Origin: Extensimonas soli
Lineage (GTDB): Bacteria > Pseudomonadota > Gammaproteobacteria > Burkholderiales > Burkholderiaceae_C
Length of the DNA: 64,000 bases
Assembly (NCBI RefSeq): GCF_029211265.1
Contig: NZ_JARGEL010000031.1
Location: 48,860-112,859, forward strand
Direction of reading: 5' to 3'
The position numbers and the translations under genes are program-made. The notes under the pieces are model-generated. The model worked only from the letters and a program-made list of their open reading frames with translations. It did not search any database and had not been told where the DNA came from. How positions within the stretch are numbered: the stretch's first letter is position 1; every line of letters starts with the position of its first letter. Positions 16,534 to 35,731 of the stretch are shown one piece after another.

Positions 16534-16902
16534 ATGAACACCAACCAACAGATCCCCGCCACCCAGAACGAAGCCTGGGGCTTCTGGGGCACGATGAACG
16601 AACACGCCAGCACCGCGTGGCCCCTGGCGATGAGGGCCATCTCGGACGCCACCAGCCAGCCCCTCGAATCAGTCCAGGTCTTCCTCGACAGCCGCCACGG
16701 ACGCCACTTTGCGGACGATGTGCAAAACGGGCTGTACCAGGGCCAGACCCTAGCGGACGCGATCAACGCCGCCACCCAACAGTGGATGGGCTGGACGATT
16801 GGCCGCCAGACCAGCAAGCAGTACGGCATCCCGCGCGGCCTGCCTTACCTGACGGGCTTTGTGATTCACTGCGAGATCAACGAGGAGTCGCTCGCCGCCT
16901 GA
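16534..16902 (+). CDS. Hypothetical protein, accessory cassette
   Basis: 122 residues. It is acidic to neutral with a hydrophobic core pattern (WGFWGTMNEHASTAWPLAMRAISDAT, HFADDVQNGLYQGQTLADAIN, GLPYLTGFVIHCEI). RBS AAGGAG lies nine bases before the ATG. Similar proteins accompany DUF6900/DUF3489 genes on mobile elements in my recollection, with no known function. Its last 37 bases overlap the end of the convergent methyltransferase gene. Confidence 0.75.
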   Translation: MNTNQQIPATQNEAWGFWGTMNEHASTAWPLAMRAISDATSQPLESVQVFLDSRHGRHFADDVQNGLYQGQTLADAINAATQQWMGWTIGRQTSKQYGIPRGLPYLTGFVIHCEINEESLAA

Positions 16903-18137
16903 TCATCGAACAGCGCGCCATCCGACTCGCGGGTGGCTTGCTTGCCAGCCCATTCCTGCCAGCGCCGCACGATCACGTCCACGTACTTAGGGTCGAGTTC
17001 GATCAGCCGTGCCAGCCGCCCTGACTTTTCGGCGGCGATCAGCGTCGTGCCGGAGCCCCCGAACGGGTCGAGCACCACGTTGCCCGGTCGGCTCGAATTG
17101 CGTATCGCGCGCTCGACCAACTCCACCGGCTTCATCGTCGGATGCAGGTCGTTCTTCTGCGGCTTCTTGATGTTCCAGACGTCACCCTGGTCGCGGTCGC
17201 CGCACCAGTGACGCTGCGCGCCCTCGGGCCATCCGTACAAGATTGGCTCGTACTGGCGCTGGTAGTCGGCCCGGCCCAGCGTGAAGGTGTTCTTGGCCCA
17301 GATGATGAACGTCGACCACTTTCCACCGGCGGCACGGAACGCTGCCTGCAGCACATCCAGTTCGCTGGACGACATCGCCACGTAGATGCCGCCCCGGCAG
17401 TTCCCGATGGTCGGCGTCAACGCCGCCAGCAGGAAGTCGTAGAAGCCGTCGCCGAGGTTGTCGTTCAGGATCGCGCGATCCTTGCCGCGCATCTTGTCCT
17501 TGGCGCTGTTGGCGTAGTTCACGTTGTACGGCGGGTCGGTGAAGACCATATCCACCGGCTCGCCATCGAGAACCCGGTCGTAGCTCTCAGCCACAGTGGA
17601 GTCGCCACACAGCAGACGGTGGCCACCGAGCAGCCAGACATCGCCCGGGCGCGAGACGGGTGTCTCTGACACCTCGGGCACCGCATCGTCATCGGTTTCG
17701 CCTTCGCCATCCGGCTCGTCGCCCGCCATCAATTCCGCAAGTGCATCGGCATCGAAGCCGGTCAGCGACACGTCGAAGTCGTCATCCTGAAGGGACGCGA
17801 TCTCGATGCGCAGCATCGCGTCGTCCCAGCCCGCGTTCTCGGCGATGCGGTTGTCCGCGATCACCAGGGCCCGGCGCTGCGTCGCGCTCAGATGATCGAG
17901 CACCACCACCGGCACCACCGCCAGCCCGAGCTTCTGCGCAGCAGCAAGCCGTCCGTGCCCGGCCACGATGACACCATCGCTACCGGCGAGGATCGGATTG
18001 GTGAATCCGAACTCGGCAATCGAGGCAGCGATCTGCGCCACCTGATCGTCCGAGTGGGTGCGCGCATTGCGGGCGTAGGGCAGCAGTTTGGCGGTCGGCC
18101 ACTGCTCGATCTTGTCGGCAAACCACGAGGCGGTCAT
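16866..18137 (-). CDS. ParB-domain/DNA methyltransferase fusion, DPPY type
   Basis: 423 residues. Residues 10-110 form a ParB/sulfiredoxin-like domain (LLPYARNARTHSDDQVAQIAASI, VIVAGHGRLAAAQKLG). Residues ~160-405 form an amino-methyltransferase with motif IV FTDPPYN near residue 205 and the SAM site DPFGGSGTT near 365, an order fitting beta-class enzymes. The DPPY motif usually marks N6-adenine methylation. With no partner endonuclease, it is probably a phage orphan methylase protecting against host restriction. Start overlaps the stop of the paralogue upstream (ATGA). Confidence 0.9.
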   Translation of the reverse strand: MTASWFADKIEQWPTAKLLPYARNARTHSDDQVAQIAASIAEFGFTNPILAGSDGVIVAGHGRLAAAQKLGLAVVPVVVLDHLSATQRRALVIADNRIAENAGWDDAMLRIEIASLQDDDFDVSLTGFDADALAELMAGDEPDGEGETDDDAVPEVSETPVSRPGDVWLLGGHRLLCGDSTVAESYDRVLDGEPVDMVFTDPPYNVNYANSAKDKMRGKDRAILNDNLGDGFYDFLLAALTPTIGNCRGGIYVAMSSSELDVLQAAFRAAGGKWSTFIIWAKNTFTLGRADYQRQYEPILYGWPEGAQRHWCGDRDQGDVWNIKKPQKNDLHPTMKPVELVERAIRNSSRPGNVVLDPFGGSGTTLIAAEKSGRLARLIELDPKYVDVIVRRWQEWAGKQATRESDGALFDDQAASDSSLISQ

Positions 18138-19639
18138 TGCGCTACCTCCGTGGTGGCCAGACGTTCACTGGCGACGTCATCGAAGGATTGGCCGGTGGCC
18201 AGCAACGTGACGGGCACGCCGGAGTGGTTCTGCTGGAAGCGCTTGATGGCGACGTCCACGTACTCCGGCGCGATCTCAACGCTGCGACACACACGACCGG
18301 TGCGCTGCGCGGCCAGCATCGTCGTGCCGCTGCCGCCAAAAGGTTCGAACACGATGTCGCCTGCGTCCGTGTAGGCCTCGATCACGAACTCCGGCAACGC
18401 CACCGGGAACACAGCCGGGTGGTCGATGTCCTGACCGATCTTGCCCTTGTGACGCATCACGCGGATCACCGAGTCGGGAATCCGGGTGTCCTGCGTCGGC
18501 TGCCCCTTGTGCGTCCAGCCGCCGACCTCGCCGTCCTTGCCGCGCATCGCCGTGGACGAGCCATCGGCACGCAGGTGCGACTCCTGGCCCGCGTGCTTGC
18601 AGGGCACGATCTTGTTGGGCTTGCGGCTGGCGCGGTTGAAGTGAAATACGAACTCGAAACTCGGCGCAAAGCGACCAGCCCAGTCTCCGGGCATCCCCGG
18701 TCCTTGATCCCAGACGTACCACGCGAAGCGCCGCCAACCCTGCGTGCGCATCCAGCCAAGCCACGCATCCCAATACGGGATGACTTCGTTGTCGCGGTGG
18801 ATCAACCCGAGGTTGACCAGCACCTGGCCGTCGTCGGCCGTTGGCACGTTGGCAAACACGCCGCGCATCAGGCCATCCCAATCCTTGACACCGCCGCTGG
18901 TGTAGTCACGCTGGTTGCCGTAAGGCGGTGAGGTGAAGCACAGCCGGGCCGCATCGCCCTGCATCAGCGTGGCGACTGCTGTCGGGTCGGTGGCATCGCC
19001 ACAGATCAGACGGTGGGAGCCGATGGCCCAGACATCGCCGGTGCGGGACACCGGCACCACAGGGGCATCCGGCACATCATCAGCAGCGTCCGGTTCGTCG
19101 GCATCTGCCTCCTGGTCGGCGTCATCGGTTTCCACCTCGTCAGCGAGCAAGGCCTCGATCTCAGCATCCTCGAAACCGGTCAACGCAAGGTCGTACCCGG
19201 CCTCGGACAGCTCGGCCATCTCCAGCGCCAGCATCTCCTCGTTCCAACCGGCGTCGAGCGCCAGCCGGTTGTCAGAGATGACGTAGGCACGCTTCTGCGT
19301 GGGCGAGAGGTGCGCCAGTTCTATGACCGGCACCTGATCCAGCCCGAGCTTGCGCGCGGCGGCCAGACGACCGTGGCCCGCGATGATCCCGTTGTCGCCG
19401 TCCACCAGAACCGGATTCGTCCAGCCGTACTCGACGATGCTGGCGGCGATCTTGGCCACCTGCTCATCCGTGTGCGTGCGTGGATTACGGGCGTAGGGGA
19501 TCAGCGCCTCGACCTTGCGGTACTCGACGTTGAGCGTGTTCAGAATCGGTTCCTCAAAAGGAAAGCCCGCCGACGGAAAACCGTGGGCGGGCTCGTGATG
19601 GGTGCGGACTGGTGCGGGTGCAAACTGCAAACCCTGCAA
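18134..19639 (-). CDS. ParB-domain/DNA methyltransferase fusion, SPPY type
   Basis: Up to 501 residues; the same architecture as its neighbour. The ParB-like domain (ALIPYARNPRTHTDEQVAKIAASI, GIIAGHGRLAAARKLG) is followed by an acidic linker and a methyltransferase with FTSPPYGNQ and EPFGGSGTT. The SPPY signature suggests N4-cytosine (or N6-adenine) specificity different from the DPPY paralogue. The 5' end is uncertain. The frame is open to a TTG at 19639, but alignment with the paralogue suggests the protein starts near 19540, where no ATG is seen and a non-ATG codon after GAGG may serve. Confidence 0.85.
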   Translation of the reverse strand: MQGLQFAPAPVRTHHEPAHGFPSAGFPFEEPILNTLNVEYRKVEALIPYARNPRTHTDEQVAKIAASIVEYGWTNPVLVDGDNGIIAGHGRLAAARKLGLDQVPVIELAHLSPTQKRAYVISDNRLALDAGWNEEMLALEMAELSEAGYDLALTGFEDAEIEALLADEVETDDADQEADADEPDAADDVPDAPVVPVSRTGDVWAIGSHRLICGDATDPTAVATLMQGDAARLCFTSPPYGNQRDYTSGGVKDWDGLMRGVFANVPTADDGQVLVNLGLIHRDNEVIPYWDAWLGWMRTQGWRRFAWYVWDQGPGMPGDWAGRFAPSFEFVFHFNRASRKPNKIVPCKHAGQESHLRADGSSTAMRGKDGEVGGWTHKGQPTQDTRIPDSVIRVMRHKGKIGQDIDHPAVFPVALPEFVIEAYTDAGDIVFEPFGGSGTTMLAAQRTGRVCRSVEIAPEYVDVAIKRFQQNHSGVPVTLLATGQSFDDVASERLATTEVAQ

Positions 19640-28725: not shown

Positions 28726-29202
28726 CTACCCGAAGGACGCGATCAACTGGCGTTGCTCATTCCAGTCCAACGGCACCTTGGCCCGCAGGATGGCCTCCAG
28801 AGACACTGCCCGAGGCAGCCGTCCTTCGTAGGCGGCCTGGATGATGTCGGGGGCGAGAAGTGCCAGCCGCAGCAGATCGTTGACCGTGGAACGGTGGATG
28901 CACTCCCGTTCAGCGATCTCGGTGCCGCTGGCCACCGTCCCGTTGTCGATCAACTGCTGCCAGTAGATGCCTCGCCCCAGTGCCTTGAGCAGCGGGCGAT
29001 CCTGTTCGGGGGTGAGCACCGGGGTATCGGTGACGGCAATCGGCTGGCTGACGCCTTCCGGGGCGACAATCACCTTCTTGATGCCGCGCTTCTTGAAATG
29101 GAAGGGCACGAAAGTCGTGATCCGGACACCGCCGCCTTCCAGCGGGTGGCGGCGCTCGTGGGGTTTGCCATCGCCGACCAGCTTCTTTGAAGAGCGGTTC
29201 AT
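28726..29202 (-). CDS. Recombinase-associated HTH protein
   Basis: 158 residues. The C-terminal half contains a KorB-like helix-turn-helix (NGTVASGTEIAERECIHRSTVNDLLRLALLAPDII), and the N-terminal basic half has HFKKRGIKKVIVAPEG. Proteins of this type regularly follow this class of large serine recombinase in proteobacteria, in my recollection. They may be directionality factors or regulators. Start overlaps the recombinase stop by four bases (ATGA), so the two are co-translated. Confidence 0.75.
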   Translation of the reverse strand: MNRSSKKLVGDGKPHERRHPLEGGGVRITTFVPFHFKKRGIKKVIVAPEGVSQPIAVTDTPVLTPEQDRPLLKALGRGIYWQQLIDNGTVASGTEIAERECIHRSTVNDLLRLALLAPDIIQAAYEGRLPRAVSLEAILRAKVPLDWNEQRQLIASFG

Positions 29203-30566
29203 GGGGCCACCTCCATTTCCAGCAGCTCGCCCCCAATGCTGTCCGCCTGCAACTCACCGGCCAGCTCCCGCCATCCCGACTCGCGCCAAACGATGTCGAC
29301 GCCATCGGAGAGGAGCTGGACGCGCTCGATCAGCAGGTTGACCAGCCGCACCTGCTCAGCGGGGAACAACTGCTTCCAGACCTCGCCGAGGCGGCGCATG
29401 GCCAACACGGTGGTTGGCTCGTCGATCTCTGGGTAGTTGATGCGAACCGTGTTCCAGACCCCTTGGATGCTTTCGGGCGACTGGAGCGCGCCCACCAGCA
29501 GGTTCACCACCACTTCCTCGATCTGGTCGGCCGGGATCATCCCGGTGGCGCTGCTGCGGTAGCCGTAGCGGCTGTCCGCCTTGGGGATGTAGTAGCGGTA
29601 CTTCTTGCCCGAGGGCTTCTTGCTGTAGGTGATGTGGTACTTGCCTCCATCAGGGCCGTACATCAGTCCGCGCAACAACGCATCGGTCTTGTGCTGGGTT
29701 TGGGTCTTGCCCATGCGCTGGTGAGCATCCTCGGCGAGGATGGCTTGCACGCGATCCCAAAGCTGGCGGGTGATGATCGGCTCGTGCTGTCCAGCAAACA
29801 CCTCCCCTTTATGGCGGATCTCGCCAACGTAGATTGGATTGCGCAGTACCTTGGAGATGTACTTCTTGTCCATTGGCGTGCCATTGCGCACGCGGCCATC
29901 CTTCAGGCGGTTGGGCTTGGTAGTGATTCCCTCCAGGGCCATCTCGCGGACGATATCCGTGATGCAGCGCGTTTCGGTGAAGCGCGTGAAAATGCGCCGG
30001 ATGGTTTCGGCATCCCTCTCCTCGATGACCAGCTTGCGGTCTTTGACCTCGTAGCCCAGCGGGGTGTAACCGCCCATCCACAGGCCCTTGCGCTTGCTGG
30101 CGGCGATTTTGTCGCGGATGCGCTCGCCGGTGACTTCACGCTCAAACTGCGCGAAGGACAGCAGGATGTTCAACATCAGCCGTCCCATCGACGTGGTGGT
30201 GTTGAATTGCTGGGTAACCGAAACGAACGACACCTTGTGGCGCTCGAACACCTCCACAAGTTTGGCGAAGTCGGTCAGGCTGCGCGTCAGGCGGTCAATC
30301 TTGTAGACCACCACGATGTCGATCTGGTCGGCAATGATGTCGGCCATCAGTCGCTTCAAGGCCGGGCGCTCCATGTTGCCGCCCGAGTAGCCGCCGTCGT
30401 CGTAGTCGTCGGCCACCGGCAACCAGCCCTCGGCACGCTGGCTCACGATGTAGGCTTGGCCCGCTTCGCGCTGGGCGTCGAGGGAATTGAAGGATTGGTC
30501 GAGGCGTTCGTCCGTGGATACGCGGGTGTAGACGGCGCAGCGCTTCTTGGTTACGACAGTGTTCAC
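29199..30566 (-). CDS. Large serine recombinase (phage integrase)
   Basis: 455 residues. GTG start at 30566 overlaps the upstream TGA (GTGA), with GAGG six bases before it. The resolvase-type catalytic domain has CAVYTRVSTDERLDQSFNSL with nucleophile Ser near residue 16, conserved RLTRSLTDF and GRLMLNILLSFAQFERE, then the long E helix. A recombinase domain follows (GYTPLGYEVKDRKLVI, ISKVLRNPIYVGEI). The usual zinc-ribbon segment is present, but its Cys pairs are missing (GLMYGPDGGKYHITYSKK). It integrates the prophage by strand exchange at short att sites. Confidence 0.93.
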   Translation of the reverse strand: MNTVVTKKRCAVYTRVSTDERLDQSFNSLDAQREAGQAYIVSQRAEGWLPVADDYDDGGYSGGNMERPALKRLMADIIADQIDIVVVYKIDRLTRSLTDFAKLVEVFERHKVSFVSVTQQFNTTTSMGRLMLNILLSFAQFEREVTGERIRDKIAASKRKGLWMGGYTPLGYEVKDRKLVIEERDAETIRRIFTRFTETRCITDIVREMALEGITTKPNRLKDGRVRNGTPMDKKYISKVLRNPIYVGEIRHKGEVFAGQHEPIITRQLWDRVQAILAEDAHQRMGKTQTQHKTDALLRGLMYGPDGGKYHITYSKKPSGKKYRYYIPKADSRYGYRSSATGMIPADQIEEVVVNLLVGALQSPESIQGVWNTVRINYPEIDEPTTVLAMRRLGEVWKQLFPAEQVRLVNLLIERVQLLSDGVDIVWRESGWRELAGELQADSIGGELLEMEVAP

Positions 30567-31024
30567 TTGGTGCCTCGCTTCTGCTTGTTCTTGGTGATTC
30601 CGAAAAACAGCGGCCCTGACCACTGCGTGCCGGTGATGTGGCGGGCGACTCCCGACAAGCTCTTGAAGCGACGGCCTTCGTATTCAAAAGTGCCGTCCGC
30701 CTGCGCGGTGACGCGGTGTTCGCGGTTGTCGAATTCCCGTACCAGAACGGTGCCGGGAACGACCTGGACTTCGACGCCACGCTGCGTCTTGATGTTGGAT
30801 TGAGCTTCGCCGATCCGTGCCAGTTGCGTCTTCACGAGCAGGGTGGTGCCCAGCGCCTCCTCCTGCATCTTGTAGGCGACACGGCCTTCGACATAGGCCC
30901 GGTTGTGGTGTGGTGGTCGCTGCGGGAAATACTTGTCCCAAAGCGCCCACAAGTCTTTCATGGACAGCTTTGGCAAATTGGCGATTTGCACCGCCAGAGA
31001 CGGTGGTGTCTTTGGTGCGTTCAC
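30563..31024 (-). CDS. DUF2924 protein
   Basis: 153 residues. LSMKDLWALWDKYFPQRPPHHNRAYVEGRVAYKMQEEALG is the DUF2924 signature, and the C-terminal RRFKSLSGVARHITGTQWSGPLFFGI resembles a short recombinase-accessory or nucleic-acid-binding fold. DUF2924 genes sit beside serine recombinases in many proteobacterial elements and probably assist or regulate recombination (inference from neighbourhood). Stop overlaps the recombinase GTG; start overlaps the upstream small gene. Confidence 0.88.
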   Translation of the reverse strand: MNAPKTPPSLAVQIANLPKLSMKDLWALWDKYFPQRPPHHNRAYVEGRVAYKMQEEALGTTLLVKTQLARIGEAQSNIKTQRGVEVQVVPGTVLVREFDNREHRVTAQADGTFEYEGRRFKSLSGVARHITGTQWSGPLFFGITKNKQKRGTK

Positions 31025-31315: not shown

Positions 31316-31870
31316 ATGTTTTTCTGGGCGGCGTTGATCGCCTTGACTGCTTGCAGTGCCAGCGCGGAGACCATCACGGGTCGAGTGATTGGCGTGGCCG
31401 ACGGTGACACGGTCACCGTCCTCGATGCGGATAGGACACAGCACAAGATCCGGGTGGCGGGGATCGATGCGCCTGAGAAGAAGCAGCCGTTCGGACAGCG
31501 ATCCAAGGCGTCGATGTCCAACCTCGTGTTCGGCAAAGACGTCGTCGTGATGGGCAGCAAGCGCGACCGCTACGGGCGACTCGTTGGCAAGGTGCTGGTC
31601 GCCGACCCCTCCTGCACCGCACGCACCTGTCCGAAGACACTGGACGCAAGGCTGGCACAGATCACAACCGGGATGGCTTGGTGGTACCGCCAGTATGCAC
31701 GGAAGCAGTCCGCCGAGGATGCTGGTACCTACGAGCTCGCCGAGCAGGAGGCGCGCGACCGCCACGTCGGGCTGTGGCGTGATGTCGCCCCGATCCCCCC
31801 TTGGGAGTGGCGTCGCGCCACGCACCCGCAGTCAGGCCAGAGATTTTCCGCGCTGGGTCGCCTCCATTGA
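31316..31870 (+). CDS. Thermonuclease (SNase)-like protein with signal peptide
   Basis: 184 residues. The N-terminal MFFWAALIALTACSASA is a Sec signal peptide with cleavage after ASA (a lipobox-like LTAC also occurs). The mature part is a staphylococcal-nuclease-like OB fold: RVIGVADGDTVTVLDADRTQHKIRVAGIDAPE with the metal Asp residues, then SKRDRYGRLVGKVLV with catalytic-type Arg, and AWWYRQYARKQSAEDAGTY. It probably degrades nucleic acid in the periplasm or outside the cell. It is transcribed away from the recombinase operon. Similar genes occur on conjugative and integrated elements. Confidence 0.85.
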   Translation: MFFWAALIALTACSASAETITGRVIGVADGDTVTVLDADRTQHKIRVAGIDAPEKKQPFGQRSKASMSNLVFGKDVVVMGSKRDRYGRLVGKVLVADPSCTARTCPKTLDARLAQITTGMAWWYRQYARKQSAEDAGTYELAEQEARDRHVGLWRDVAPIPPWEWRRATHPQSGQRFSALGRLH

Positions 31871-31898
31871 CCTGATTTTCGTCTGGTCATATATTATG
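31867..31898 (+). promoter_or_regulatory. Sigma-70 promoter of the LexA-like/QueC-like operon
   Basis: TTGACC (31867-31872), a 17-base spacer and TATATT (31890-31895) form a near-consensus promoter 25 bases before the ATG at 31921. The -10 lies inside CATATATTATG (31888-31898), which has CATA/TATG half-sites around TAT and could be an operator for the first gene product. It overlaps the last codons of the nuclease gene. Confidence 0.65.
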
Positions 31899-31920
31899 CA
31901 AATCGGCAAGGAGCAATGCC

Positions 31921-32154
31921 ATGAGCAAGCGAAAGACCGAAGGCATTACTAAGCCGCAGACCAGAACGCTGAGGGCGATTTGCCAAATCTTCGACAGCAC
32001 AGGCCTGCCGCCTACCGTCAAGGAATTGGCCGATGTGCTGGGCATCAGCCACGCCAGCGCTCACGAACAAATCGCGCAGCTGGTACGCAAGGGGTACTTG
32101 AGAAAAGAGGAAAAAAAGGCCCGGAGTATCGTGATCGCGAAACGGCACGAGTGA
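31921..32154 (+). CDS. Stand-alone LexA-type winged-helix protein
   Basis: 77 residues, consisting only of a LexA N-terminal-like DNA-binding domain: KPQTRTLRAICQIFDSTGLPPTVKELADVLGISHASAHEQIAQLVRKGYLRKEEKKARSI, where LPPTVKELADVLG and the recognition helix SHASAHEQIAQL match LexA. No autoprotease domain follows, so it cannot be cleaved like LexA. RBS AAGGAG lies before the ATG. As the first gene after a strong promoter, it probably autoregulates the operon containing the next two genes. Confidence 0.85.
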   Translation: MSKRKTEGITKPQTRTLRAICQIFDSTGLPPTVKELADVLGISHASAHEQIAQLVRKGYLRKEEKKARSIVIAKRHE

Positions 32155-32189
32155 TCGCGATGCTTTGATCTGAACAAAGGGAGTCCTGG

Positions 32190-32981
32190 ATGGGGCACGT
32201 TCGGCTCGGAGTACTGCCAAGAACGAAGGCGTGGAAGGAGGTCGTCGGCCTGATCGCCGCCGGCGCAAACGTCTCCCAAATTGCGAATGCCACCATCACG
32301 GCGGCCGAAAAGGCCTTCTCCTTCGTGATGAACGATGTGGGTTACACCGAGGCTGTTTGGCTGATGACCCAGATGGCGATTGCCGCCAAGAAGCCCGACA
32401 TCCACCAGCACCTCGCTGCTGCGGGCATCCATCTCCCCGCCGATCCCTCGCTCGTCGATGTGACCACGGCAATCACCGAAGCGCTGGACCGGCGCGTGGA
32501 AGGCACCGGCAAGCGCTCCGATCTCGGCATGCTCGCCAACCGGGCCATCGTTGGCGCCGTCAACGATGTACTGGCCCCCAAGCTCCATTCGCTGTTTTCT
32601 TCCGATCCGGACACGATGCGGGCGGCCCTCGCGGATTTGGGCAAGCCCCGTGGGTTCGGTGAATTCTCCAGGCACTTCTTCGCCCGGCTCGCCAACGAGG
32701 GCCTGCAGTATTTCTTGAGCAAAGTCATCAACACGCAGCTCGGCGAAGGGATGCGTTTTGCAACGATGAATCAGGCGGCCGAGTTCAGCCTCGCGCTGCA
32801 AACCCACACCCGTGAGGCGTCGCTCATCGTCGAGCAGTTTTCGAGTGAATGGTTTTCAAAGCACCGCTATCACGAAGGCGGCGACATCTCCAGAAAGTCA
32901 TCGGACGGGTTCGCGGGCTACGCGCTGAAAAAGATAAGGGATGAGTTGAAGGTGGGAGCGAGTAGCGGCGATGCAAGATAA
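32190..32981 (+). CDS. Met-Gly-starting protein of the QueC-like operon, unknown function
   Basis: 263 residues with RBS GGGAG six bases before the ATG. It begins MGHVRLGVLPRTKAWKEVVGLI, then IANATITAAEKAFSFVMNDVGYTEAVWLMTQMAIAAKKPDI, LPADPSLVDVTTAITEALDRRV, RHFFARLANEGLQYFLSKVI and a basic end. It is mainly helical, with no membrane segment and no catalytic motif seen. Its last 11 bases overlap the QueC-like gene, indicating a functional pair. The residue after Met is Gly, so the mature N-terminus is probably Gly. In size and pairing it recalls QatB of QatABCD systems, but homology is unproven. Confidence 0.75.
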   Translation: MGHVRLGVLPRTKAWKEVVGLIAAGANVSQIANATITAAEKAFSFVMNDVGYTEAVWLMTQMAIAAKKPDIHQHLAAAGIHLPADPSLVDVTTAITEALDRRVEGTGKRSDLGMLANRAIVGAVNDVLAPKLHSLFSSDPDTMRAALADLGKPRGFGEFSRHFFARLANEGLQYFLSKVINTQLGEGMRFATMNQAAEFSLALQTHTREASLIVEQFSSEWFSKHRYHEGGDISRKSSDGFAGYALKKIRDELKVGASSGDAR

Positions 32982-35085
32982 GCGCTACATCCTTTGCGGC
33001 AACGTATCCGCCAAGGGCATCAGTGAAGACCCCGCATGCGACCTGCGCTTGCGGCTCTCGGGCAGGGCCGGGCACGGGAACATCACCCTGCGGATCGAAG
33101 ACGTTCACACCAAAATGTTTCGTGGTGTGCCGCCACTGTTTCACGACCTGTTGGAAATCGCCGCCTACGTCTACAGCGCCGATCAGGTGGTCAAACGCGG
33201 CGCGGACGATGTCGATACCTTTGGTGATGGCTGGCGGCGCGACCTGCACTTTGTAGTGCCGGTGCGTAACCCTGACTTCTGGAACAGCAGGGACGTACAG
33301 GAGGCGCTGTGCTCGACGCTGGGGTTCCTGTCCGACGACCAATACCAGTTCGACTTCGTCAGGCTAGACCAAGATCATCAGTTCCAGGAGTACCTCGAGT
33401 TCAACGACACCCAGCAGATGTACGGGATGCCGGAGCAGGTGGTCATGTTCTCCGGAGGACTGGACTCCCTAGCCGGTGCCATTGATGAGGTTGTAAACCA
33501 GAGGCGGCGCGTGGTCCTGGTCACTCACAAGTCGACCTCCAAGCTCAACAAACGTCACCGTGTTCTCGAAGAGATGCTGGCCGCGAAATCAGGCGACAAC
33601 GTGCCGCACCGCATTACCGTTCGCGTCCACAAGACCAAAGGGCTGAACCACGAGTACACCCAGCGTAGCCGGTCGTTCCTGTACGTCTCCATCGGCGCGA
33701 CGATTGCTAGGATGCTGGGCCTCAAGAGCGTGCGCTTCTACGAGAACGGCGTGATCAGCCTGAACCTGCCGATATGCGCCCAGGTGGTCGGCGGCCGCGC
33801 CACGCGCACGACGCACCCCAGGGTGATGAAAGGCTTTCAGGACATCATCACCTTGGTGGCCGGCGAGCCCTTTACCGTCGAGAACCCGTACATCTGGAAA
33901 ACCAAGGCCGATGTCGTCAAGATCATCACCGACGCGGGTTGCCACGATCTAATCAAGCATTCGATGACCTGCACGCACACCTGGGAGATGAGCAACCTGC
34001 ACACCCATTGCGGCGGCTGCTCGCAGTGCATCGACCGGCGTTTCGCCGTCCTCGCCGCCAAAGCTGATCAGCACGATCCGGTGGAGCACTACAAGGTCGA
34101 CGTGTTCACCCAGAGCAGGAAGAGGGACGAGGACAAGATCATGGCGGCCGCTTATCTGGAGCGGGCCAACCAGGTGAAAAACCTGACAGGCGTGGCCGAC
34201 TTTATCAGCAGCTATCCCGATGCCTGCCGCGTATTCCAGTATTTGAACACCAGTGCCGGGCAGGCAGCGCAGCGGGTATTCGACCTCTACAAGCGGCACG
34301 CCGAGGAAGTAACCGGTGCTGTCGACGAACTCGGGCGGCGTTACTTCACCCAGATCCGGGAACGCTCTTTGCCCGGCGACTGCTTGCTGCGGACGGTCTA
34401 CGAGTCCGCTTCGGTAAATTCGGTTCCCGCCGTGGTGTCGGTGGAGAAACAGCCGGAGAACTTCTTCCGCAAGCGCGGGGCAGTTTGGGAAGTGCGATTC
34501 CAGGGACGCAACACCATCTGCCTGCTCAATGTCGACAAGGGCGCGGAGTACATCAACCTCCTGCTGGCGTTTCCAGAACGGGAAATGTCGGTTTACGAAA
34601 TCGCCTGTGGAAGCGCCGCCAACGCCGTCGATCTGCCTGCCAATGCCGTGGTTGCGCCTGAAGAGATCGAGGATGGCTTTCAGATCGTCACCGGTGCGCC
34701 GCTGACCGACGCGGGCGATGTTGCAGATCGGCGAGCCCTCCGAGAGTGGCAGCAACGTGCCCGTGAACTTCTCGGCGAAATTGGCGAGGCGCGTGACGCA
34801 GGGGATCACACTCGAGTCGAGGAGATCGAAGAGGAGATGGCGTTCCTGACCAAAGCGCTGGAGGGAGGAAAGGGGCTCGGCGGGAGACAACGCAAGGCCG
34901 GAGACAAGCGTAAGAACGTCCGGGACGCCTTTCGCAATGCCGTAGACCGAGCCATCAAACAGATCGAGAAGTACGACAAACCCTTGGCGGAACACCTGAA
35001 GGCCAGCATCAAGCACGGCAACGAGGTCGTCTACCGGCCCGGGATGCCGATTACCTGGGAGGTCCGGCCCATCGTAAACACATAG
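32971..35085 (+). CDS. QueC-like PP-loop ATPase with C-terminal regulatory-type module
   Basis: 704 residues, about three times QueC. Residues 1-155 are a strand-rich N-terminal domain of unknown type. Residues 156-370 form the QueC-like core: VVMFSGGLDSLAGA (PP-loop 161-166) and the zinc site Cys334, Cys347, Cys350, Cys353 (HCGGCSQC). Residues ~490-548 look winged-helix-like (FFRKRGAVWEVRFQGR, EYINLLLAFPEREMSVYEI); 588-632 are coiled coil. Residues 640-697 (RKNVRDAFRNAVDRAIKQIEK, VYRPGMPITWEV) resemble the C-terminal module of large actinobacterial/myxobacterial regulators. QueC homologues make deazaguanine nitriles; related proteins occur in Qat and type IV CBASS defence. It overlaps the preceding gene by 11 bases. 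Confidence 0.85.
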   Translation: MQDKRYILCGNVSAKGISEDPACDLRLRLSGRAGHGNITLRIEDVHTKMFRGVPPLFHDLLEIAAYVYSADQVVKRGADDVDTFGDGWRRDLHFVVPVRNPDFWNSRDVQEALCSTLGFLSDDQYQFDFVRLDQDHQFQEYLEFNDTQQMYGMPEQVVMFSGGLDSLAGAIDEVVNQRRRVVLVTHKSTSKLNKRHRVLEEMLAAKSGDNVPHRITVRVHKTKGLNHEYTQRSRSFLYVSIGATIARMLGLKSVRFYENGVISLNLPICAQVVGGRATRTTHPRVMKGFQDIITLVAGEPFTVENPYIWKTKADVVKIITDAGCHDLIKHSMTCTHTWEMSNLHTHCGGCSQCIDRRFAVLAAKADQHDPVEHYKVDVFTQSRKRDEDKIMAAAYLERANQVKNLTGVADFISSYPDACRVFQYLNTSAGQAAQRVFDLYKRHAEEVTGAVDELGRRYFTQIRERSLPGDCLLRTVYESASVNSVPAVVSVEKQPENFFRKRGAVWEVRFQGRNTICLLNVDKGAEYINLLLAFPEREMSVYEIACGSAANAVDLPANAVVAPEEIEDGFQIVTGAPLTDAGDVADRRALREWQQRARELLGEIGEARDAGDHTRVEEIEEEMAFLTKALEGGKGLGGRQRKAGDKRKNVRDAFRNAVDRAIKQIEKYDKPLAEHLKASIKHGNEVVYRPGMPITWEVRPIVNT

Positions 35086-35344: not shown

Positions 35345-35731
35345 TGGTGGAGCTGGCGGGAGTTGAACCCGCGTCCGCAAGCCTTCTTCGAGCAGATCTA
35401 CATGTTTAGCGCGCTGTTTTAGGTCTCGCCACCGGTATCGCGCAGGCGCACGCTACACCGGTTGCCAGTACCCTTGTTTCTCGTTGCGGCCCAAGGTACC
35501 CGGGGCGCAACCAGCCTATGTGAATGCCCTTGCAGCCTGGAGGCACCGAGTGTTCAGTGCCCCCTTGCCCAGCCCATAGGCCAACTGTTGCAAGGCTCGC
35601 TGGCAATTAAGCAGCGAGTGCGAAACGTTCGTCGTTTGCAGTTACTTTGTTGAATCGAGATTTACGAGCGTGACCCAAGCTCGACATGCACCGCACCGAT
35701 TCCGAACCCGCGTCGAAACCAGGACAGCCCC
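35345..35731 (-). ncRNA. ssrA: tmRNA
   Basis: A 387-nt one-piece tmRNA read leftward. The 5' end GGGGCTGTCCTGGTTTCGAC and the 3' end with GGTTCAACTCCCGCCAGCTCCACCA-type T-arm and CCA form the tRNA-like half. The tag reading frame at 35639-35607 encodes ANDERFALAA followed by TAA, with the resume codon GCA. It rescues stalled ribosomes with SmpB. The 3' end faces the prophage side, and ssrA is a classic integration hotspot. Confidence 0.97.

What the first reader, a model, noticed from the sequence alone, without database searches (positions are those of the whole stretch)
31867..35085. Compact QueC-like operon beside ssrA: candidate undescribed defence or modification system
Seen: a near-consensus promoter, then a free LexA-type winged helix, a 263-residue Met-Gly protein and a 704-residue QueC-like PP-loop protein with intact SGGLDS and a four-Cys zinc site; the last two overlap by 11 bases. 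Known: QueC-like proteins are recruited to anti-phage systems (QatC in QatABCD, the QueC-like protein in type IV CBASS). Here there is no QatA ATPase, no TatD nuclease, no CD-NTase and no other queuosine gene nearby, so a two-component (plus regulator) variant is plausible. It sits at the recombinase-ssrA edge, a usual cargo position.
Basis: partly seen in the sequence, partly recalled or inferred. Interest (0 to 1): 0.87.

Follow-up and report, generated by a model that had tools for sequence, protein, structure and literature searches.

The report
Prophage-borne two-gene Qat-type defence module
A dormant virus in this bacterial genome carries a compact, self-regulated pair of genes that is a distant, stripped-down relative of the Qat anti-phage system, with an extra domain fused to its enzyme that may do the work of the two Qat proteins it lacks.

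Summary
The cassette is R (77-aa LexA-type winged helix), B (263 aa) and C (704 aa), behind a near-consensus promoter, between a serine recombinase and ssrA at the edge of a tailed-phage prophage.

C is not merely QueC-like. Its residues 3-473 match the whole of QatC (Z 31.4, 400 residues), with the QatC active-site threonines. B matches no sequence family, but its predicted fold matches QatB, QatC's partner (Z 14.3 over 209 residues; next unrelated match 6.6). All 54 distinct B proteins begin Met-Gly-His; QatB's essential N-terminus is Met-Gly-Thr-Ser. So this is a highly diverged natural QatBC pair without QatA or QatD. The pair recurs, nearly always adjacent, in at least five phyla. Its C proteins form a clade separate from qatABCD QatC.

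New features: (1) a C-terminal module fused to C, replaced in relatives by a PhoB-like winged helix or a DpnII/MboI-type nuclease; (2) a conserved palindrome between the -35 and -10 boxes of R, found in 2.9 million viral contigs only there (30 of 30); (3) a fixed position at the prophage edge.

Anti-phage function, N-terminal glycine modification and the tail's role are inferred. Verdict: a new variant of a known kind.

The parts
31867..31895 (+). sigma70-type promoter TTGACC-17-TATATT of the cassette
   Evidence: scan, 10 of 12 matches; the same boxes are conserved upstream of R in relatives
31868..31889 (+). palindromic operator TGACCTGAT-N4-ATCAGGTCA (window copy TGACCTGATTTTCGTCTGGTCA, 2 mismatches) lying between the -35 and -10 boxes; inferred binding site of R
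   Evidence: only match in the window with up to 3 mismatches, 0 expected; 30 of 30 exact matches in viral contigs lie 51-54 bases upstream of R; 0-1 mismatches in 27 genome loci
31921..32154 (+). R: 77-aa free LexA-type winged helix, inferred autoregulator
   Evidence: PF01726 48 bits; precedes B in Proteobacteria and Desulfobacterota copies with the window-type tail, absent in Planctomycetota and Verrucomicrobiota copies
32190..32981 (+). B: QatB-fold protein with invariant Met-Gly-His N-terminus, inferred substrate of C
   Evidence: model pLDDT 78.6; QatB 9y01_A Z 14.3 over 209 residues, next unrelated 6.6; MGH in 54 of 54 distinct homologues
32971..35085 (+). C: QatC-like PP-loop ATPase with fused C-terminal module; QatC part is residues 3-473
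   Evidence: PADLOC QatC 8e-58; NCBIfam QatC 219 bits, below its 280 cut-off; QatC 9y01_B Z 31.4 over 400 residues
34390..35082 (+). C-terminal module of C (residues 474-704): beta-beta-beta-helix-helix, winged-helix-like, then coiled coil
   Evidence: model secondary structure; related to the C-terminal ends of alphaproteobacterial TPR proteins and Streptomyces STAND-type ATPases; replaced by other domains in relatives
29199..30623 (-). large serine recombinase of the carrier prophage, not part of the module itself
   Evidence: PF00239, PF07508, PF13408; phrog_95 integrase; beside the cassette in relatives
35345..35731 (-). ssrA (tmRNA), attachment-site gene at the prophage edge, not part of the module
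   Evidence: ARAGORN; same edge is tmRNA or tRNA-Ala in relatives

Best explanation
The cassette is a naturally minimal QatBC-type anti-phage module carried as cargo by a temperate tailed-phage prophage integrated at ssrA. Proposed working: C binds B, and after removal of the start Met the free N-terminal glycine of B enters C's PP-loop active site, where C uses ATP to attach a small molecule to it (shown for Cap9 in type IV CBASS, proposed for QatC). The modified BC complex then acts against incoming phage. QatA (a DNA-binding ATPase) and QatD (a predicted nuclease) are absent; the module fused to the C-terminus of C takes over nucleic-acid binding, or in a Leptospira relative DNA cutting. 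R binds the palindrome between the -35 and -10 boxes and represses the operon until infection or induction relieves it. Shown here: gene order, QatB and QatC folds (predicted models), catalytic and zinc motifs, invariant Gly2, conserved operator, absence of QatA/QatD, tail swapping, prophage location. Inferred: anti-phage activity (about 0.75), glycine modification (about 0.6), DNA binding by the tail (about 0.5), tail standing in for QatA/QatD (about 0.35), repression by R (about 0.75).
For: C: QatC profile hits, sequence match to QatC structures 9vlk and 9zee, whole-length structural match Z 31.4 against 13.1 for QueC and 12.5 for Cap9. QatC-type motifs are kept: SGG-DS, Thr278/Arg279/Thr280 in TRTTHP, ENG, P-x4-TK, CG-C-x2-C-x2-RR. 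B: QatB fold Z 14.3, MGH in 54 of 54, N-terminal 15 residues 10/15 identical to the Leptospira homologue whose remainder is 19% identical. QatBC alone defends against lambda, and QatB Gly2, QatC SGG-DS and Thr278/Thr280 are required (PMC13279940). Non-prophage copies sit beside HmaABC, type I restriction genes and an NsnB-like ATPase. Operator. No QatA or QatD near any copy. Tail swapping.
Against: No phage phenotype was tested. Sequence profiles of B and QatB do not align (hhalign probability 1.6%), so B's kinship rests on a predicted fold and on its partner. C misses the NCBIfam QatC cut-off. B lacks the 30-90-residue disordered N-terminal tail of QatB: its first helix begins at residue 13, so how Gly2 would reach the active site of C is unclear. 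The chemistry of QatC itself is unresolved. The tail could be a regulatory or dimerisation part. Defence-gene neighbourhood was not compared with a random background.
Confidence: 0.68

Rival explanations
1. It is a prophage-maintenance or lysogeny-control module: R, B and C regulate integration, excision or prophage gene expression, and the winged-helix tail of C acts at prophage or host promoters. Any effect on other phages is secondary.
For: Fixed position next to the serine recombinase and the attachment-site gene in over 30 elements; dedicated autoregulated promoter; tails are mostly DNA-binding winged helices. Even distant copies in Planctomycetota lie near a serine recombinase.
Against: B-C also occurs without this recombinase next to HmaABC, type I restriction genes and NsnB and on a Leptospira plasmid; the QatBC core is a proven defence unit (PMC13279940); the nuclease-tailed relative fits defence better than lysogeny control.
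Confidence: 0.15
2. It is a toxin-antitoxin-like addiction unit: one of B or C is toxic when modified or unmodified, R autoregulates the operon, and loss of the element kills the cell.
For: Compact autoregulated operon with a small DNA-binding first gene and overlapping B and C genes; one genome copy has a broken B with C intact (L098).
Against: R is absent in Planctomycetota and Verrucomicrobiota copies, so it is not an obligate antitoxin; no known toxin domain in B, and C resembles a modifying enzyme.
Confidence: 0.1
3. C is a metabolic QueC paralogue making preQ0 or a related base for tRNA or phage DNA modification.
For: PF06508 hit over its cut-off and intact PP-loop and zinc site.
Against: Full-length QatC match with QatC-type threonines replacing the Tyr/Asp pair that binds the deazaguanine substrate (PMC13279940); the genome has its own QueC elsewhere; QatC does not complement queC (PMC13329287).
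Confidence: 0.02
4. The window copy is a decaying relic, since one operator half-site has drifted.
For: Window operator has 2 mismatches against 0-1 in relatives.
Against: All three reading frames are intact, the C motifs and Gly2 are kept, and a near relative (L067, 96-98% identical in all three proteins) is intact too.
Confidence: 0.05

Closest known systems
qatABCD anti-phage system (QatB and QatC; structures 9y01, 9y02, 9vlk, 9zee)
   Same: Complete QatC architecture including N- and C-terminal extensions; QatC-type active site; QatB fold; Met-Gly start with Pro and Trp shortly after; B gene directly before C gene with overlap. QatBC alone is enough for defence against some phages (PMC13279940).
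   Different: No QatA, no QatD; B undetectable by QatB models; N-terminus MGH rather than MGTS and no long disordered tail; extra 230-residue module on C; own regulator and operator; prophage cargo; C proteins form a separate clade (97/94 support).
Type IV CBASS (Cap9 with CD-NTase CdnD; N-terminal deazaguanylation)
   Same: QueC-fold enzyme beside a protein with a conserved Met-Gly start; works-like analogy: ligation of a small molecule to an N-terminal glycine.
   Different: No CD-NTase, no Cap10, no CBASS effector; Cap9 is the bare QueC core and keeps Tyr/Asp where C has Thr/Thr.
Canonical QueC (PF06508 cluster 1)
   Same: PP-loop, zinc site, core fold (Z 13.1).
   Different: C is three times longer, lacks the QueC substrate motifs, has no linkage to queD or queE.

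Membership tests
Qat system, QatC component | QueC core with QatC-specific N- and C-terminal extensions | tested here: met
   9y01_B aligned over 400 of 428 residues, Z 31.4, on a predicted model
Qat system, QatC component | QatC active-site signature: SGG-DS, invariant Thr pair in TRTTHP, E-x-G, P-x4-TK, four-Cys zinc site | tested here: met
   Thr278 and Thr280 kept; Thr278 is Ser in the Leptospira copy
Qat system, QatC component | score above NCBIfam QatC equivalog cut-off (NF041925, 280 bits) | tested here: not met
   219 bits; PADLOC QatC E 8e-58
Qat system, QatB component | QatB all-helical fold | tested here: met
   9y01_A Z 14.3, 209 of 215 residues, 8% identity, on a predicted model
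Qat system, QatB component | sequence similarity to QatB | tested here: not met
   no PADLOC QatB hit, while the canonical QatB of L121 is found; hhalign probability 1.6%
Qat system, QatB component | N-terminal glycine motif (MGTS) on a long disordered tail | tested here: inconclusive
   Gly2 invariant in 54 of 54, but MGH and no long tail
Qat system | QatA ATPase and QatD TatD nuclease in the operon | tested here: not met
   none in window or in flanks of any B-C locus; positive control found. So it is filed as a variant of the Qat kind, not as a qatABCD system
Qat system | anti-phage activity | not testable with these tools
   needs plaque assays
Type IV CBASS | CD-NTase plus Cap9 and Cap10 | tested here: not met
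   no CD-NTase hit among B, C, R or the neighbouring genes scanned; active site of QatC type
Canonical QueC | QueC length, substrate motifs, que gene linkage | tested here: not met
   704 aa, Thr/Thr instead of Tyr/Asp, QueC/QueD/QueE-like genes on other contigs

The most novel reading that the evidence does not exclude
A separate branch of Qat immunity in which the two accessory proteins are replaced by exchangeable modules fused to the modifying enzyme: a DNA-binding winged helix in most lineages and a restriction-type nuclease in one. The modified BC complex would itself find or cut phage DNA, so the fused domain would reveal what QatB modification is for.
Probability: 0.35. Interest if true: 0.8.

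Novelty: new variant of a known kind. Interest (0 to 1): 0.64.

Why it matters
What QatC attaches to QatB, and how that stops a phage, is an open question (PMC13279940). A natural two-gene Qat with the enzyme fused to DNA-binding or nuclease domains gives a compact system in which to test it, and points to DNA as the site of action. It also shows that Qat detection tools miss a branch found in at least five phyla because its QatB is invisible to sequence models, and that temperate phages carry Qat as a dedicated, self-regulated cargo.

Tried and rejected
Sequence search of B in PDB, Pfam, NCBIfam and PADLOC gave nothing; B was placed only by fold. Profile comparison of B with nine canonical QatB proteins found no alignment. 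Foldseek alone ranked QatB eighth with E 0.45 for B; the second look by VIA-align separated it clearly. The type 1 tail profile found no PDB relative, and the L119 and L064 tails none either, although Pfam Trans_reg_C hits L097 and L102 over cut-off. A long attachment-site repeat was sought and not found: the 91-bp ssrA end is unique in the genome, as expected for a serine recombinase with a short core. The SNase gene upstream was rejected as part of the module because several copies lack it. A housekeeping-QueC reading was rejected. The host QueC row in A6 was read in a wrong frame and was not used.
Full report
CHECK OF THE OBSERVATION. The promoter TTGACC-17-TATATT begins at 31867. R (31921-32154) is a 77-residue LexA-type winged helix without a protease domain. 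B (32190-32981) is 263 residues and starts Met-Gly. C (32971-35085) is 704 residues with SGGLDS and four zinc cysteines. B and C overlap by 11 bases. ssrA is at 35345-35731 on the minus strand. The window lies in a 3.4-Mb genome whose own QueC, QueD and a QueE-like protein are encoded on other contigs.

C IS A COMPLETE QATC PLUS AN EXTRA MODULE. PADLOC and NCBIfam both name residues 58-395 as QatC (E 8e-58; 219 bits, cut-off 280), and the only strong PDB sequence matches are QatC entries 9vlk and 9zee. The predicted model (mean pLDDT 77) matches the QatC of 9y01 over residues 3-473 with Z 31.4 and 400 aligned residues, against 13.1 for QueC and 12.5 for Cap9. The pair of threonines that replaces the deazaguanine-binding Tyr/Asp of QueC and Cap9 in QatC (PMC13279940) is present as Thr278 and Thr280 in the motif TRTTHP; Thr280 is invariant in the family and Thr278 nearly so. 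The zinc cysteines are 334, 347, 350 and 353. Residues 474-704 have no counterpart in QatC.

B IS A QATB BY FOLD. No sequence library searched knows B, and a profile comparison with nine canonical QatB proteins fails. The predicted model (mean pLDDT 78.6, eleven helices) nevertheless matches QatB (9y01_A) with Z 14.3 over 209 of QatB's 215 ordered residues; the best unrelated chain has Z 6.6. The match to the known partner of QatC, next to a QatC, makes a chance helical-bundle match unlikely. All 54 distinct B proteins start Met-Gly-His, whereas Gly follows Met in 15 of 128 background reading frames. In the Leptospira homologue 10 of the first 15 residues are identical to B but only 19% of the rest. 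QatB has an essential MGTS start with conserved Pro16 and Trp18, and a Gly2 change abolishes defence (PMC13279940); B has invariant Gly2, Pro10 and Trp15. Unlike QatB, B has no long disordered tail.

THE PAIR IS REAL AND WIDESPREAD. Searches of viral contigs with C and with B gave 27 and 32 loci; all 27 have B, and 31 of 32 have C, the exception being a contig end. Of 36 genome loci found with B, 34 have C next to it; one exception is a contig end and one a truncated copy. Hosts span Pseudomonadota, Desulfobacterota, Planctomycetota and Verrucomicrobiota, plus a Leptospira plasmid. Two further copies turned up in a sample of the phylum. It is uncommon: 3 of 398 genomes of the phylum sample, the window's own included. 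On a maximum-likelihood tree, 22 C proteins of this type form one clade (97/94) apart from 13 qatABCD QatC. No QatA or QatD lies in the flanks of any copy, while the same search finds both in a control operon.

THE FUSED MODULE IS SWAPPED. In the window and its nearest relatives the tail is a 230-residue module: a beta-rich winged-helix-like part and a coiled coil. It also ends unrelated proteins: alphaproteobacterial TPR proteins and a Streptomyces STAND-type ATPase. It has no Pfam model above cut-off. Two Phycisphaerae copies carry a PhoB-like Trans_reg_C domain instead; similar signatures appear by eye, below Pfam cut-off, in the Rhodobacteraceae copy and in G705 and G736. The Leptospira copy carries a DpnII-MboI nuclease domain, 38 bits against a cut-off of 27. 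One verrucomicrobial tail is unassigned. In qatABCD, QatA binds DNA and QatD is a predicted nuclease (PMC13279940), so it is tempting that fused DNA-binding and nuclease modules stand in for them. That is inference.

A DEDICATED OPERATOR. Upstream of R the spacer between -35 and -10 is a palindrome, TGACCTGAT-N4-ATCAGGTCA, conserved from Burkholderiales to Desulfobacterota. All 30 exact occurrences in 2.9 million viral contigs lie 51-54 bases upstream of R. The window copy has two mismatches and is still the only match in 64 kb. Autorepression by R is the natural reading, not shown. Planctomycetota and Verrucomicrobiota copies lack R.

CARRIER. The window's left half encodes tape measure, major capsid, head protease, portal, terminase, primase, Sak4-like and Cas4-type exonuclease proteins: a tailed-phage prophage whose left end lies outside the window. 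In relatives the recombinase, DUF2924 and ParB-like genes are beside the cassette and the element ends at tmRNA or tRNA-Ala, typically about 260 bases after C. Copies outside this prophage family lie next to HmaABC, type I restriction genes, an NsnB-like ATPase and other PADLOC families. No random background was computed for this.

MECHANISM AND CONFIDENCE. Most likely C binds B and conjugates a small molecule to B's N-terminal glycine, as shown for Cap9 on its CD-NTase and proposed for QatC on QatB; the BC complex then acts on invading phage, with the tail providing nucleic-acid contact or cutting. The prophage benefits by excluding competitors. Homology to QatBC is near certain (about 0.95); defence about 0.75; glycine modification about 0.6; the tail as a stand-in for QatA and QatD about 0.35.

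NOVELTY. The held literature describes qatABCD, the sufficiency of QatBC in truncated operons (PMC13279940) and the fact that only about a third of QatC-cluster genes have qatA or qatD nearby (PMC13329287). I found in it no description of natural QatBC-only systems, fused tails, this operator or prophage carriage. Most preprints and subscription papers were not searchable. I rate it a new variant of a known kind.

Noticed in passing
window 34453-35082; L103, L127, L128, L129: The C-terminal module of C is a recurrent, apparently unnamed domain that also ends alphaproteobacterial TPR proteins and Streptomyces STAND-type ATPases; no Pfam model covers it above cut-off.
   Followed up: partly
window 35345; L009, L028, L029, L067, L072, L073, L077, L079, L082-L084: Related serine-recombinase prophages integrate at the 3' end of either ssrA or a tRNA-Ala gene, which share the GGTGGAG start on this strand.
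   Followed up: partly
window 16866-19639: Two tandem prophage genes each join a ParB-like nuclease domain to a DNA methyltransferase domain (phrog_498).
   Followed up: no
window 31316-31870: A staphylococcal-nuclease-like gene lies between recombinase and R; it is missing or broken in several relatives, so it is not part of the core cassette.
   Followed up: partly
L066 5324-7278: Agrobacterium plasmid with a 192-aa gene of unknown family overlapping a QatC-like gene, no QatA or QatD annotated beside it: possibly a further QatC branch, on a very long tree branch.
   Followed up: partly
L064 8730-11272: Rhodobacteraceae plasmid copy of C with a PhoB-like tail, cut at its N-terminal end next to IS3 genes, B lost.
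   Followed up: no
L098 9001-11522: Comamonas granuli copy has a broken B gene but an intact C gene.
   Followed up: no
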